Assembly (NCBI RefSeq): GCF_000374925.1
Contig: NZ_KB895541.1
Coordinates: 1,366,122 to 1,430,121, forward strand
Length of the DNA: 64,000 nt
Source of the DNA: Arthrobacter sp. 131MFCol6.1
GTDB lineage: Bacteria > Actinomycetota > Actinomycetes > Actinomycetales > Micrococcaceae
Reading direction: 5' to 3'
A model generated the notes under the pieces. It had not been told where the DNA came from and ran no database searches. It saw only the letters and a list, made by a program, of their open reading frames with translations. The translations under genes and the position numbers were made by a program. Each line of letters starts with the position of its first letter. The first letter of the stretch is position 1. This document shows positions 56,901-64,000 of the stretch, piece after piece.

Positions 56901-57128
56901 GGCTTCATCTCCCAGCCCCTGGCGATCGTAGTGATCGGCGGCCTGATCTCCTCCACGGCCCTCACACTCATCCTGGTCCCGGTGCTGTACCGGCTCGTGG
57001 AAGGCCGGCGCGAGCGCAGGGCGCTACAGAAGCCGCTGCGCCGCGGACGCCATTCCGGGCCGGCCGTGGCCGAAGACTTCCCCGACGACTTCCCCGAAGA
57101 CGCTCCCCTGCCAACCGGTTCGCACTAG
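53949..57128 (+). CDS. RND-superfamily efflux permease (AcrB/HAE1-like)
   Basis: 1059 residues in the two-fold layout of AcrB-like transporters: first membrane segment at residues 11-30, a large outer loop (SMPGASPEVVDKQI, SLAFTYGSNLDRARNQI), six-span bundle with IAIGRVVDDSIVVIENIKRH, a second bundle after a second outer loop, with IGMLMLVGIVVTNAIVLID. The proton-relay Asp pair is visible as VVDDS. No adaptor or outer-membrane partner is present, as expected in a single-membrane actinobacterium. Start ATG 53949 (MFRLAKLSL) with AGGAG upstream. Its stop shares the palindrome CTAG with the stop of the convergent synthetase gene. Substrate unknown. Confidence 0.88.
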   Translation: MFRLAKLSLANRALIALITVFACVFGVITMSSLKQELIPSIEFPQITVISSMPGASPEVVDKQISAPLEKALNSVEGLESTSSTSRNGVSQISLAFTYGSNLDRARNQIDRAISNAKQALPKDVQPQAIAGSISDFPIVFLAVSSDKPLSELNADLARLSVPALQKLDGVRGADVTGGATQHIQILPRPRDLAASGASLQSISDALKNNGALVPAGTIEEQGKTLSLQIGSPVDSLDAIKALPLGAARDAATIGSVADVSLVEDARTSITRTNGKETLALSVTKKPEGDTVAISHAVKDAIPQLEAELGSNAKFTPVFDQAPFIEKSIKDLTTEGLLGLGFAVLVILVFLMSVRATLVTAVSIPLSLLITFIGLSATGYSLNILTLGALTIAIGRVVDDSIVVIENIKRHLSYGEDKITAIGTAIREVAGAITASTLTTVAVFLPIAFVGDLAGALFRPFALTVTIALLSSLLVSLTIVPVLAYWFLRAPAVTGSPASAAGIATKAHEAEQSTLLQRGYLPVLSGTQRHPVLTLVAAALVLAGTVAMSPLLATDLLGRSGENSMTVKQALPAGTSLDEASASAIRVEDTLRGIDGIKDVQATTGNAQTGFSALLSSGASNSTFTVVTDEKANQGKLQETVRRELSKLGDAGKITVGSQQGGFGTSSTVDITLKAASTADLQTASDAMVKAMDGVPGSSEVATNLAASQPVVQVKVDRAKAVAAGLNEERVAGVLAATISPIPAGTIRIDTNDFPVRIGEGTRFTSIEAVRDIPLPTAAGAVPLGSIASVEQVDVPVSITASNGQRTARVSVTPSGSNLGAVSTEVQNRLKSVQLPPGVTATIGGATTQQADSFRQLGLALLAAIAIVYVIMVAAFKSLVQPLILLVSVPFAATGAIALLVVTGVPLGLPSLIGMLMLVGIVVTNAIVLIDLINQYRQPRNGEPGMNVADAITHGARQRLRPILMTALATVFALTPMALGLTGGGGFISQPLAIVVIGGLISSTALTLILVPVLYRLVEGRRERRALQKPLRRGRHSGPAVAEDFPDDFPEDAPLPTGSH

Positions 57129-60100
57129 GAACCAGAACCTGGCGTCCCTGCCTTTTTCCGCGATGCCCGGTGCGTCCCGTGGGCTGCGTTGGCTGCAGCA
57201 CGGGTCCCGCGGGCTGCGTCGGATGCAGCACGGGTTGCGTGGGCTCCGTGGGCGCCGTGCGCACCCTTGGAGATTTTAGGCCGGCCGGCAGCTGCCGCGG
57301 CTGCGTCCCGGTGACGGGGCCCGCGCGATGCCAGGGCCGCGAGGGTTGCGGATGCGGCGGGGTTCATCACCTCGCGGGCCGGGTTCCCGGAATACGTTGC
57401 ACCTTCCGGGACATCTTCGCCTTTCATCAGAAAGGCGTCGGCGCTGAGGGACGAACCTTCGCGCATCGTCGCCCCGTAGTTGACCCAGCCATCGACGCCG
57501 AGGGAGCAGTGGTTGCCGAACACGATGTAGTCGGACTTGAACGCGCCGTCTTCCATGGAGTGGCCCTGGACGTGTGTTCCCTCGTTGAACGTACAGTGAT
57601 CGCCGATCGTGACGAGGGTTTTTTCCGGCATGTTCAGGCCGGCGTCGTAGAGCCGCTTGCCCACCTTGACGCCCAGCAGCCTCCACATCAGGGCCTTGAA
57701 CGGGGTTCCATTGAACGGCGCCCCGGCCAGCAGCTTCCAGAGACGCTCATGCCGCCAGAAGTACCGGTCGTAGATCGAGCAGTATTCCGGCTTCAGGCGG
57801 CGGAAGCCCATGACCGAACGCTCCACCAAAGCGGTAAACAGCACCCGGAACACCAGCAAGCCAAGCATTGCCGCGGCGATGGCCAGCACACCGAGGAAGC
57901 TGTGCGCCGAAACGGCTACAGCGCCGGCCAGTGTGGCAGCGAGCAAGAGGACCCATTTCACGGAAAGGAACAGCACCATGCTCAGGATGTTGTGCCGGTT
58001 CTTGGCCGGGAGGATCCGTTTCACGGCTTCCGGGGTATTGAGTTCCTCAAACTGCGCGTCACGCTGGACCGACCGGGGAATCTCAAATGCGGGTGAGCCG
58101 AGCAGCCCCACGTCCCTCCGGATCGGGCCGTCAATCGGAATCATAACTTTCGAGGCCAGGAGGCAGTTCTCACCGACATGGGCACCGATCGGAAACGTGA
58201 TGTTGTTTCCGAGGAAGTTGTGGCCGGCGATCTGGACCTGCGAGAGCCGGAAGGAGGAGCTCGTGTAATCGGCGTTCATCATGTTCAGGCCGTCTGAGAC
58301 CATGGTTCCCGTTCCTACAGAGCACAGGAATGGCGATTCGTGGCCCAGTGTGGGGCCGAAGTTTGAACCTGTTTGCTGCACGTTGCCCAGTTTCCAGCCC
58401 AGGGCCTGCAGGTAGTAGATGATGTAGGAGCTGTCGCCGAAGGTGTCTTTGTACGTTTTGATGTTCGAGACGCGGGATATCAGCCGGTGGATCGAAAAAT
58501 GCCAGCCATAGAGCGGATAGACCACATCAGGCTTAATGAAGTGGTTCAGCAGTCGCGGCAGGCAGAGGACGGTCACCAGGCCGGTGATCAGCCCGACAAT
58601 GAACAGGACCAGTGTCACCACCACGACGTCGACAAAGAACGTGAAGGCTCCCAACTGAAGGTGTCCTGTGCTCAGGTAGGGCGGCAGCAGCGCGGCCAGC
58701 CCGAGGACGCCCGCGGGAACAACCAGGACGAGGCGGTTGAACAGCTGGAGCAGGCTGTAGATGACCCTCCGGCGGGTGCTGCATTGGACGGCCGGGACCC
58801 GCAAGTAGTTTGTGCTGGCACGTGCGGCGGGAGAACCGTGCCAGACCTCGCAGTCGGGTACCGCCTGCGAGGTCTGCAGCGATGAGGCATGTCCGAGCTG
58901 CGTGTCATTGCCCATCGACGTTCCAATGTCGAGGGTGGTTCTCTCCGAGATGAGAACGTTGCTTCCCAACGACACCGGGCCGATCTCGATGATGCCCGCA
59001 TGTGCCCGGTAGCACAGGAACGAGGAGTCTTTGTTGATGACGGTGTTGTCACCGACGGTGAGCAGGTCCGGGCACGCGGGCACCTTCCGGGAGAAGATCA
59101 CGACCCCCTTGCCGATCTTTGCGCCCAGTAGCCGGAGATACAGCACATAAAGCGGCGAACCCGCGAACGTCACCAATGGGTTTGCCCTCGTAAGTGTCTT
59201 GACCGTCCAAAAACGGAGATAGGCCAGGCTCCAGATTCGGATGGTGCCGGGCTTCCACCTCCCGACGAGGACCCATTTGGCGATGATCGGGGTCACAGAC
59301 AGGACCACGAAAGTTGCGACACCGAACCCGATGGAGCGAAGCCACATGTCCAAAGGTGTGCTTCCCCCCAACACCCATTCGTAGCCAAATATCAGCAGCC
59401 AAGCGGCGTACATCGTATAACCGAGGAAAATCAGCAGTTGGATTGCACCACACAGGGCGTACTGGAACGAACTCACCGGGGGCATCGGTGCGGGGCGCGC
59501 AGCGTCGGCCGCCGGTACGTCCGCGATGTGAATAGATTCACTGTGCCTGGCTTCGAGGCACGCGGCGAGCTGCCGAACCGTCGGGTGCTCGTAGATATCC
59601 TGCATCGCCGCTGCGGGCAGGGCGGTTTCTTTCCTGATGCCGGCGCAGTAGCGCGCCATCAACAACGAGTCGGCACCGAGGTCGTTGAAGAAGTGGGCAT
59701 CGGTGGAGACCTTGTCAAGGCTCAGCACGGCGCCGAGCTGGGCGGCCAGGGCCTCTTCGGCGGCGGTTGTCGGGGCGGTGTATGACCCCGAGCCCGCCCG
59801 GCTGATCCTGTGCTCCGGACGGGGCAACCGCTTCCGGTCCACTTTGTCACTGGCCATCATGGGAATGGCGTCCAGCTGTTCAAAGTAAGCAGGAACCATG
59901 TACCCGGGAAGCCTCGTGCGCAGCATCCGGTGGAGGTCATGGGCATCCACGCCCTCCACGTCCTGACGCAGGGTGTAGTAGGCCGCCAGCTCCACGGTTC
60001 CTTGTTCCGGCTCATAGGTCTGGACGACTGCCTGCGCAATGCCCGGGAGCTGCAGGAGGACGGATTCTATTTCGCTCAGTTCGATCCGGTAGCCGCGAAT

Positions 60101-63001: not shown

Positions 63002-64000
63002 TCAAATGGTTGATCCCAAGGCGACCGGCTCTCCGGTTACAGTCACTGCGGCTGCAGCGAGAATATCGAGTCCCTTCTGAAGATCCTCTGGGCTGATAGT
63101 CAGCGCGGGCATCGCCTTGACCACCTCACCTTCGGGGCCGGACGTTTCCACGAGCAGGCCCCTGGCGAACGATTCAGCTGCGATCCTCTCCGCAGTCTGG
63201 GGGTTGGGGTAGTAAACCCCCGCGAGCAGTCCCCGGCCACGGACCGTGGCGCCTTCGACGCCCGCGGCGATCTGCGTCAGCCCGTCGTGGAGCTGCGCAA
63301 TGAGCCTCGCAACGGTTGACTGGAAGCTGCCGTCCTGCCAGTAGTACTCCAGGGCAGCTGCGCCGGTGACGAATGCCGGGTTGTGGCCCCGGAATGTTCC
63401 GTTGTGCTCGCCCGGCTTCCAGATATCCAACCCGGGTTTGAACAGTGTCAGTGCCAAAGGCAGGCCAAAGCCCGAGATGGACTTCGACAGGCAGACGATA
63501 TCGGGAGTGATCCCAGCCTCCTCAAAACTGAAAAAGGTCCCCGTCCGTCCGCACCCGGCCTGTACATCATCAACGATGAGCAGGATGTCATGTTGACGGC
63601 ACAGCTCTGCAAGGCCTCGCAGCCAGGACGCCCGGGCGGCCCGGAGCCCGCCCTCGCCCTGAACGGTTTCCACGATCACCGCTGCGGGCTTATCGATGCC
63701 CGAGCCCCTGTCTTCCAGTGCTTGCCGGAGCCACAGGAAGTCCGGCATCTGACCGTTGAAAAACCCGTCATAGGGCATGCTCGATGTGTTCGTCAGGGGG
63801 ACGCCGGCTCCCTGACGTTTCATTGAATTGCCCGTGACTGACAACGATCCCAGGGTCATCCCGTGAAACGCATTGGTGAAGCTCAGGACATGCTGCCGGC
63901 CGGTTACCTTCCGGGCAAGCTTCAGGGCAGCCTCCACTGAGTTTGTTCCCGTCGGACCGGGGAACATGACTTTGTAGTCCAAATTTCTGGGTTGGAGGAT
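63002..64000 (-). CDS. ectB: L-2,4-diaminobutyrate:2-oxoglutarate aminotransferase (EctB type), 5' end outside window
   Basis: Class III PLP aminotransferase that turns aspartate semialdehyde plus glutamate into L-2,4-diaminobutyrate. The 332 visible residues include DYKVMFPGPTGTNSVEAALK, a hallmark of EctB, NAFHGMTLGSLSVTGN, the PLP aspartate in DDVQAGCGRTG, the PLP lysine in LSKSISGFGLPLAL, and GTFRGHNPAFVTGA. About 90 N-terminal residues lie beyond position 64000. No ectA or ectC lies downstream, so the diaminobutyrate is not directed to ectoine here. It is 75 bases before the aspartokinase gene and should be in the same operon. Confidence 0.9.
   Translation of the reverse strand: MLQPRNLDYKVMFPGPTGTNSVEAALKLARKVTGRQHVLSFTNAFHGMTLGSLSVTGNSMKRQGAGVPLTNTSSMPYDGFFNGQMPDFLWLRQALEDRGSGIDKPAAVIVETVQGEGGLRAARASWLRGLAELCRQHDILLIVDDVQAGCGRTGTFFSFEEAGITPDIVCLSKSISGFGLPLALTLFKPGLDIWKPGEHNGTFRGHNPAFVTGAAALEYYWQDGSFQSTVARLIAQLHDGLTQIAAGVEGATVRGRGLLAGVYYPNPQTAERIAAESFARGLLVETSGPEGEVVKAMPALTISPEDLQKGLDILAAAAVTVTGEPVALGSTI

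What the first reader, a model, noticed from the sequence alone, without database searches (positions are those of the whole stretch)
57125..64000. Candidate poly(L-2,4-diaminobutyrate) gene cluster in an Arthrobacter-like genome
Seen: an EctB-type aminotransferase, an aspartokinase and a six-span, single-module A-T synthetase with three acyltransferase-like domains, in one tight minus-strand run. Known: Pls of Streptomyces uses this architecture to make epsilon-poly-lysine, and EctB makes 2,4-diaminobutyrate from aspartate semialdehyde. Inference: the cluster makes a cationic, possibly antimicrobial, isopeptide homopolymer of diaminobutyrate. The missing ectA/ectC supports diversion of the amino acid to the synthetase.
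Basis: partly seen in the sequence, partly recalled or inferred. Interest (0 to 1): 0.93.

Follow-up and report, generated by a model that had tools for sequence, protein, structure and literature searches.

The report
Predicted poly-diaminobutyrate cluster in Arthrobacter
An Arthrobacter genome carries a three-gene run, of a kind already known from Streptomyces, that is predicted to make a positively charged chain of the unusual amino acid 2,4-diaminobutyrate; here the enzyme predicted to make the building block is of the ectoine-pathway type, and a peptidase gene, whose product is possibly a chain-degrading enzyme, lies next door.

Summary
On the minus strand lie ectB, a second aspartokinase (ask) and a Pls/PosA-family synthetase; ectB runs past the window and the host contig shows it whole. 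Support: of 64 tree rows with the same adenylation code, 47 lie beside a DAB-type transaminase and 0 beside SbnA+SbnB; no ectC; a single DapF gene on another contig. Added here: (1) the transaminase is EctB-type, while a second Arthrobacter lineage and 23 further tree rows use Dat type; the quick tree needs five switches; (2) the Ask regulatory domain is diverged, likely feedback-relaxed; (3) an M28 peptidase gene lies beside ectB in 10 of 10 genus loci with ectB, but in 0 of 3 other Arthrobacter loci, and not after the same RND gene in 14 of 14 genomes without this cluster: a candidate polymer hydrolase; (4) in two relatives a diaminopropionate-type split synthetase sits among remnants of this cluster. 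Product, stereochemistry and peptidase role are untested.

The parts
63002..64000 (-). ectB, EctB-type diaminobutyrate--2-oxoglutarate transaminase gene; continues to window-equivalent 64273 on the host contig
   Evidence: L006:7124-8395; TIGR02407, 641 bits, cut-off 552
61475..62926 (-). ask, cluster aspartokinase with diverged regulatory domain
57125..61459 (-). Pls/PosA-family synthetase, 1444 aa
   Evidence: (TIGR02353, 678 bits, cut-off 423)
59825..61267 (-). adenylation domain, residues 65-545, pocket DFECLSVVT
59555..59749 (-). thiolation (carrier) domain, residues 571-635, Ser598
57377..59455 (-). membrane-bound terminal domain, residues 669-1361: three helix pairs and three beta-helical domains, invariant His1300 and Glu1279 in the third

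Best explanation
The window holds an ectB-ask-synthetase gene run whose products are predicted to make L-2,4-diaminobutyrate from aspartate and to join it into gamma-poly-L-diaminobutyrate, a cationic isopeptide chain that would be passed out through the membrane as it grows. Steps: (1) Ask would phosphorylate aspartate (family shown; relaxed feedback inferred); (2) a housekeeping aspartate-semialdehyde dehydrogenase would supply the semialdehyde (no asd gene seen in the run; not searched elsewhere); (3) EctB would transaminate it to L-DAB, which cannot go on to ectoine by the usual route because no ectC was found in the genome; (4) the A domain would activate L-DAB and load it on Ser598, once a phosphopantetheinyl transferase has charged the carrier (a 261-aa open frame of that family is in the genome); (5) the three-fold beta-helical domain would make the isopeptide bonds, probably at one site around the invariant His1300 (inferred); (6) the neighbouring M28 peptidase, a putative lipoprotein in relatives, would trim or hydrolyse the polymer outside the cell and protect the producer, as PldII is reported to do for epsilon-poly-lysine (inferred from gene neighbourhood alone).
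For: Gene order and families. Pocket with Phe at the second place, published for PDAP/PDAB synthetases; control rows of PosA type read DMEHNGTVT against the published DMEHNGTVS. Of 64 tree rows with the code DFECLSVVT, 47 have a DAB transaminase in the locus (16 EctB-type, 31 Dat-type), 17 neither, 0 SbnA plus SbnB. ectC in 0 of 11 genomes of this lineage tested, with 6 of 26 genomes positive in the same search as control. One DapF gene in the genome, on another contig, whereas poly-D-Dab clusters carry a coupled DapF-like racemase. Cluster Ask 62% identical to the housekeeping Ask in the catalytic part but 38% in the regulatory part. One database protein, P0120, is synthetase and aspartokinase in one chain. 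Published precedent pldA-dat-ask. M28 link.
Against: No product was measured. The pocket does not by itself part DAB from diaminopropionate: a PDAP synthetase also adenylated DAB weakly. 17 of 64 rows with this code have no DAB transaminase in view, and three lone synthetases of this lineage have neither ectB nor ask beside them (L032, L061, L128). A related pls in Corynebacterium variabile gave no product in its own host, so the run may be silent. M28 is missing beside ectB in L055, L056 and L073 (about 3 kb in view) and occurs in 6 of 7 split-type genomes without this cluster, so it may not be DAB-specific. The reference enzymes PldA and PddA were not obtained.
Confidence: 0.8

Rival explanations
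1. The synthetase makes the D-polymer (gamma-poly-D-DAB), as PddA of Streptoalloteichus hindustanus does, with a racemase encoded elsewhere.
For: Same family and same kind of monomer supply. The pocket code gives no stereochemistry, and PddA itself was not at hand for comparison.
Against: pddB is translationally coupled to pddA in the published clusters; here the neighbours of the synthetase are ask and a convergent RND gene, and the genome has one DapF gene, on another contig. A racemase of another family was not searched for.
Confidence: 0.1
2. The monomer is another diamino acid (2,3-diaminopropionate, ornithine or lysine) and EctB and Ask serve something else, for instance lysine supply for the genome's Pls-type enzyme.
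For: Phe at the second place of the pocket is shared by PDAP synthetases; the genome has a second family member with a lysine-type pocket, DAESIGTVV.
Against: 0 of 64 rows with this code have SbnA plus SbnB in the locus, 47 have a DAB transaminase; ornithine and lysine enzymes have Met and Ala instead of Phe; EctB would be of no use for lysine.
Confidence: 0.08
3. A DAB polymer is made but its role is not antimicrobial: it stays at the cell surface or serves as a store of nitrogen that M28 releases again.
For: The L023 peptidase has a lipobox-like LSGC motif, and M28 genes recur beside such synthetases.
Against: Published gamma-poly-L-DAB is described as coproduced with epsilon-poly-lysine and antifungal (stated from its sources). 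Nothing here separates the roles.
Confidence: 0.25

Closest known systems
Streptomyces celluloflavus gamma-poly-L-diaminobutanoate cluster pldA-dat-ask (Jiang 2021, PMC8117764, read in part; the original papers seen only as citations)
   Same: Same three functions: Pls-type synthetase, DAB transaminase, aspartate kinase.
   Different: There the transaminase is named dat; here it is EctB-type. An M28 gene lies beside the run here, while Jiang 2021 names a peptidase only in the pls context. Sequences of PldA and its Dat were not obtained, so the type of that Dat was not tested.
Streptoalloteichus hindustanus gamma-poly-D-Dab cluster pddA-pddD (PMC8225329, part 1 and passages)
   Same: Single-module membrane synthetase fed with DAB.
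   Different: It has a coupled DapF-like DAB racemase, PddB; none is seen here.
Streptomyces albulus epsilon-poly-lysine synthetase Pls with PldII
   Same: Same architecture; a metallopeptidase gene beside the synthetase, reported as self-protecting.
   Different: Pocket has Phe, not Ala; transaminase and aspartokinase in the run; this genome's own Pls-type gene is another locus, L012. Whether PldII is an M28 enzyme was not tested.
PosA, delta-poly-L-ornithine synthetase of Acinetobacter (PMC10522769, passages and section 13)
   Same: Same family and domain order; its predicted terminal domain also has three beta-helices on six membrane helices.
   Different: Met instead of Phe at the chain-length position.
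Ectoine operon ectABC
   Same: EctB of the TIGR02407 type.
   Different: No ectC in this genome; the gene lies with ask and the synthetase instead.

Membership tests
Pls/PosA-family homopolymer synthetase | A-T followed by the NRPS terminal domain TIGR02353, without condensation or thioesterase domain | tested here: met
   678 bits against cut-off 423; Pfam shows only AMP-binding, its C-terminal domain and PP-binding
Pls/PosA-family homopolymer synthetase | three membrane helix pairs with three beta-helical domains | tested here: met
   model; matches; a prediction, not a structure
gamma-poly-L-DAB cluster (pldA-dat-ask) | synthetase, DAB transaminase and aspartate kinase together | tested here: met
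gamma-poly-L-DAB cluster (pldA-dat-ask) | PDAP/PDAB-type pocket (Phe at the second place) | tested here: met
   DFECLSVVT; published residue
gamma-poly-L-DAB cluster (pldA-dat-ask) | synthetase groups with PldA on a tree | not tested
   WP_110952768 was not available; S. celluloflavus is not among the 80 loci
gamma-poly-L-DAB cluster (pldA-dat-ask) | product is gamma-linked poly-L-DAB | not testable with these tools
   needs culture and mass spectrometry
gamma-poly-D-Dab cluster | DapF-like DAB racemase coupled to the synthetase | tested here: not met
   single DapF gene at G000:C5; no such ORF in the run
epsilon-poly-lysine synthetase | lysine-type pocket with Ala at the chain-length position | tested here: not met
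   Phe here; Ala in the genome's other family member
poly-diaminopropionate cluster | SbnA-like and SbnB-like genes | tested here: not met
   no hit in L006, which reaches 1140 bases past the window; only this contig end was in view
ectoine operon | ectC with ectB | tested here: not met
   PF06339: none in this genome; control positive in 6 of 26 genomes

The most novel reading that the evidence does not exclude
Arthrobacter carries a self-contained poly-DAB module in which an EctB-type enzyme stands in for Dat, the aspartokinase has been freed from feedback, and an M28 lipoprotein peptidase is a dedicated poly-DAB hydrolase; its chromosomal site is a slot where polymer systems are swapped, a split, three-carrier diaminopropionate synthetase having displaced the DAB cluster in two relatives.
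Probability: 0.4. Interest if true: 0.6.

Novelty: new variant of a known kind. Interest (0 to 1): 0.48.

Why it matters
If right, DAB-polymer synthesis is an accessory trait found in 18 to 20 of 150 sampled Arthrobacter genomes and in several related genera, not a rarity of two actinomycete genera. The repeated pairing of two different DAB transaminases with one pocket code gives a sequence rule for predicting the monomer. The M28 gene is a testable candidate for a hydrolase of a DAB isopeptide polymer; I saw none described in the passages read. Polycationic isopeptides are of interest as preservatives and antivirals.

Tried and rejected
The guess that the RND transporter gene (53901-57128, convergent) is the exporter: a close relative is present in 16 of 16 genus genomes searched, 10 of which have no close relative of the synthetase, so I take it for a core neighbour. 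The guess that M28 is a core neighbour too: no M28 hit within about 10 kb past RND in 14 of 14 loci. Decay of the cluster in G053 (L043): MQO and RND are broken there as well and the genome is 79% complete with 6% contamination, so it reads as assembly error. PddB-like racemase beside relatives' synthetases: PF01678 on 44 genomes showed none clearly beside the synthetase; a weak hit (35 bits, G177) may lie in L083 and was not followed. Aspartokinase residues 317 and 320 were dropped as evidence because the genome's housekeeping enzyme differs there too. Paper search gave nothing usable. Promoter, terminator and Rfam scans, ectA and asd searches were not run.

Counts and rows dropped: one search read codes in 104 loci plus the query. 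The tree used 79 rows; left out were L006 (same as the query), L075-L077 (same records as G091, G051, G079), L044, L046, L047, L097 (split type), L096 and L105, and the lysine- or ornithine-type rows beyond six; L041-L043, L045, L048, L090, L108 and L116 had no usable full-length ORF. It is a quick tree with long branches, and its six-row outgroup is not one clade. Conservation used 99 of 105 rows (without L006, L044, L046, L047, L096, L097). The co-occurrence test used handles copied by hand and ignores relatedness of the genomes. One search also found 56-59% matches over about 230 residues in longer frames of many genomes, this one included (G000:C1:145407); I did not count these.

Papers: PMC8117764, parts 1-2 of 4 and passages; PMC10522769, passages and section 13; PMC8225329, part 1 of 5 and passages; PMC4668381, PMC9606270, PMC9223678, PMC10464499, passages; all others as search listings. 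Yamanaka 2020 and Takehara 2008 only as citations. The pocket position numbers of GrsA were recalled, not taken from a call.
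Full report
WHAT IS THERE. Three ORFs run on the minus strand: ectB (63002 to beyond 64000), ask (61475-62926) and a 1444-aa synthetase (57125-61459), with 75 and 15 bp between them. The window lies at G000:C1:1366122-1430121 and the contig ends 1140 bases later. In that stretch ectB is complete (L006:7124-8395); about 580 bp upstream of its start lies the 3' end of an M28 peptidase gene on the same strand. Downstream, the synthetase's stop overlaps that of a convergent RND transporter gene.

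FAMILIES. The synthetase matches TIGR02353 at 678 bits and the adenylation model TIGR01733; ask matches aspartate kinase models; ectB matches TIGR02407 at 641 bits (cut-off 552), above the general dat model TIGR00709 at 458. Pfam sees one A and one T domain and no condensation or thioesterase domain.

TERMINAL DOMAIN. AlphaFold2 on residues 655-1395 with 23 sequences gave pLDDT 87.7 and pTM 0.87: three pairs of long helices, each followed by a strand-rich, beta-helix-like domain. Foldseek and VIA-align return hexapeptide acetyltransferases, the picture already published for PosA. In 99 aligned family members of several pocket types His1300 and Glu1279, both in C3, are invariant, while no histidine of C1 or C2 is. 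I infer one acyl-transfer site, around C3, in a pseudo-trimer; untested.

MONOMER. The pocket reads D F E C L S V V T. Phe at the second place is the published PDAP/PDAB residue, Met the ornithine and Ala the lysine one. As a control, PosA-like proteins of Caulobacter and Sphingomonas read DMEHNGTVT; the published PosA code begins DMEHNGTVS. The pocket alone does not part DAB from diaminopropionate, so I looked at neighbours: of 64 tree rows with exactly this code, 47 have a DAB-type transaminase in the locus (16 EctB, 31 Dat), 17 have none in view, 0 have SbnA and SbnB together; the one-letter variant DFECLCVVT (L087) has both. L068 has Dat and, beside it, SbnA with a split-type synthetase. 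This genome has no ectC and one DapF gene, on another contig; published poly-D-Dab clusters have a coupled DapF-like racemase. L-DAB is therefore predicted. ectA was not searched.

TWO TRANSAMINASES. In 150 genus genomes 59 have a family member at E <= 1e-100: 12 at 64-100% identity (this lineage), 8 at 53-55%, 7 at 44-49% in a part without the A domain, and 32 at about 30% only (Pls type; a lower bound, since this genome's own Pls-type gene, found, falls short of the cut). In the first lineage ectB is beside the synthetase in 10 of 12 (in L030 the contig ends first, in L032 the synthetase stands alone) and ask in 11 of 12; in the second, 8 of 8 have ask-dat-synthetase, and the Dat tested there (L034) reaches 354 bits on the EctB model, below its cut-off of 552. 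Elsewhere EctB-type neighbours occur in Kocuria, Micrococcus, Citricoccus, a Streptosporangiaceae MAG and proteobacterial or myxobacterial contigs. On the quick tree of 79 rows EctB and Dat need 5 switches. In L078 and L107 ectC lies on another contig or tens of kilobases off, so the ectB there is not of an ectoine operon. L061 and L128, lone synthetases of this lineage, lie in genomes that do have ectC; L032, also alone, does not.

ASPARTOKINASE. Against the genome's housekeeping aspartokinase (C4), the cluster enzyme is 62% identical in the catalytic part, 38% in the regulatory part and 31% in the effector loop; the C. glutamicum enzyme scores 66, 50 and 46%. It differs from both at 279 (A to M), 294 (D to Q), 301 (S to A), 311 (to A), 361 (to F) and 374 (N to E), and keeps Gln298, Ser381 and Glu382. 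Positions 279 and 361 are among those in a review's table of altered C. glutamicum enzymes (the cells run together in the text, so which effect belongs to which change is partly unclear, and 361 may be listed as without effect). Relaxed feedback is likely, not shown. P0120 is synthetase and aspartokinase in one chain.

THE PEPTIDASE. M28 lies beside ectB in 10 of 10 genus loci that have ectB (L006 cut by the contig end, L023-L029, L043, and L031 in divergent orientation) and in 0 of 3 named Arthrobacter loci with about 3 kb in view (L055, L056, L073). The RND gene is kept in genomes without this cluster, but no M28 lies within about 10 kb after it in 14 of 14 loci (10 genomes without a close match, 2 Dat-type, 2 split-type). 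Counting matches of at least 60% identity over most of the protein (in pieces in G088), M28 occurs in 11 of 12 genomes of this lineage (this one only by its cut copy, seen), 6 of 7 split-type, 0 of 8 Dat-type and 2 of 123 others (Fisher p 6e-11 for the lineage, 2e-9 without this genome's cut copy; relatedness not removed). At least nine of these genomes hold a second such copy. M28 genes also lie directly after the synthetase, two in tandem in Micrococcus L078 and Citricoccus L107 and one in the Pseudonocardia MAG L096, and within about 1 kb before it, on the other strand, in Actinomadura L054 and L102 (37% identity). The L023 protein has an LSGC lipobox-like motif. PldII, beside pls, is a metallopeptidase reported to protect its producer. 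A polymer hydrolase is the natural reading; the substrate is untested, and the split-type genomes show it need not be DAB-specific.

A SLOT WHERE POLYMERS ARE SWAPPED. In G061 and G132 (L045, L046) the stretch between RND and M28 holds another system: SbnA, a protein with carrier domains and the terminal domain but no A domain, a separate A-T protein with another code (DIWQSTADD in L046), SbnB and, in L046, a LuxE-family gene. Families were read on L046 (SbnA TIGR03945, SbnB TIGR03944, LuxE PF04443) and on the relative L041 (three PP-binding domains, TIGR02353 at 653 bits). In L045 it is flanked by a shortened synthetase and a frameshifted ectB of the window's kind, in L046 by an ectB remnant alone. 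So a diaminopropionate-type system sits in the ruins of this DAB cluster. Among the 120 listed relatives of the L041 protein are Arthrobacter, Kocuria, Citricoccus and Paeniglutamicibacter names. The one published PDAP synthetase is a single ORF; I saw no split type in the listing, which is a small search.

NOVELTY. The kind is known (pldA-dat-ask; poly-D-Dab), and Jiang 2021 found no hit for the DAB synthetases in its cheese and skin collections. The search that joined Arthrobacter with poly-amino-acid terms found only that paper; 15 genome papers name both NAPAA and Arthrobacter (listing only), so clusters of this broad class have been noted there. Not seen in print: the EctB variant, its exchange with Dat, the M28 link, the swap at the site. 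Hence a new variant of a known kind.

Noticed in passing
L045:5054-18203, L046:7501-18036; also L041, L042, L044, L047, L048, L097: Split polymer system: SbnA, carrier-rich terminal-domain protein without A domain, separate A-T protein, SbnB; in L045 and L046 it lies among remnants of the window's ectB cluster, between RND and M28.
   Followed up: partly
L012:10217-14197 (G000:C5): A second Pls/PosA-family gene in the window's own genome with the lysine-type pocket DAESIGTVV; a PPTase-family open frame lies about 1.7 kb beyond it.
   Followed up: partly
L032, L061, L128: Lone synthetases of the window's lineage without ectB or ask in view; ectC is present in the genomes of L061 and L128 but not of L032, so an ectoine operon might feed two of them.
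   Followed up: partly
P0120, P0076, P0083: Synthetases fused with an aspartokinase (P0120), with a phosphopantetheinyl transferase domain (P0076) or with a second adenylation domain (P0083).
   Followed up: no
L068, L087, L093, L097 (Pseudonocardia): Single-chain and split-type synthetase pieces lie side by side in one locus; SbnA was found in L068, L087 and L097, SbnB in L087 and L097.
   Followed up: no
L006:8831-8951 (window-equivalent 64709-64829): Five copies of gcgttcgaa in a repeat with spacings 25, 37, 25 and 25 between ectB and M28.
   Followed up: no
57125-57300: The synthetase ends in a tail rich in Ala, His, Lys and Arg (after residue 1390: 10 Lys/Arg, 5 His, 1 Asp/Glu), predicted disordered where modelled.
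   Followed up: no
L149, L150, L151: Second copies of the M28 gene elsewhere in G083, G070 and G139, 75-98% identical to the L023 copy, with other neighbours.
   Followed up: partly
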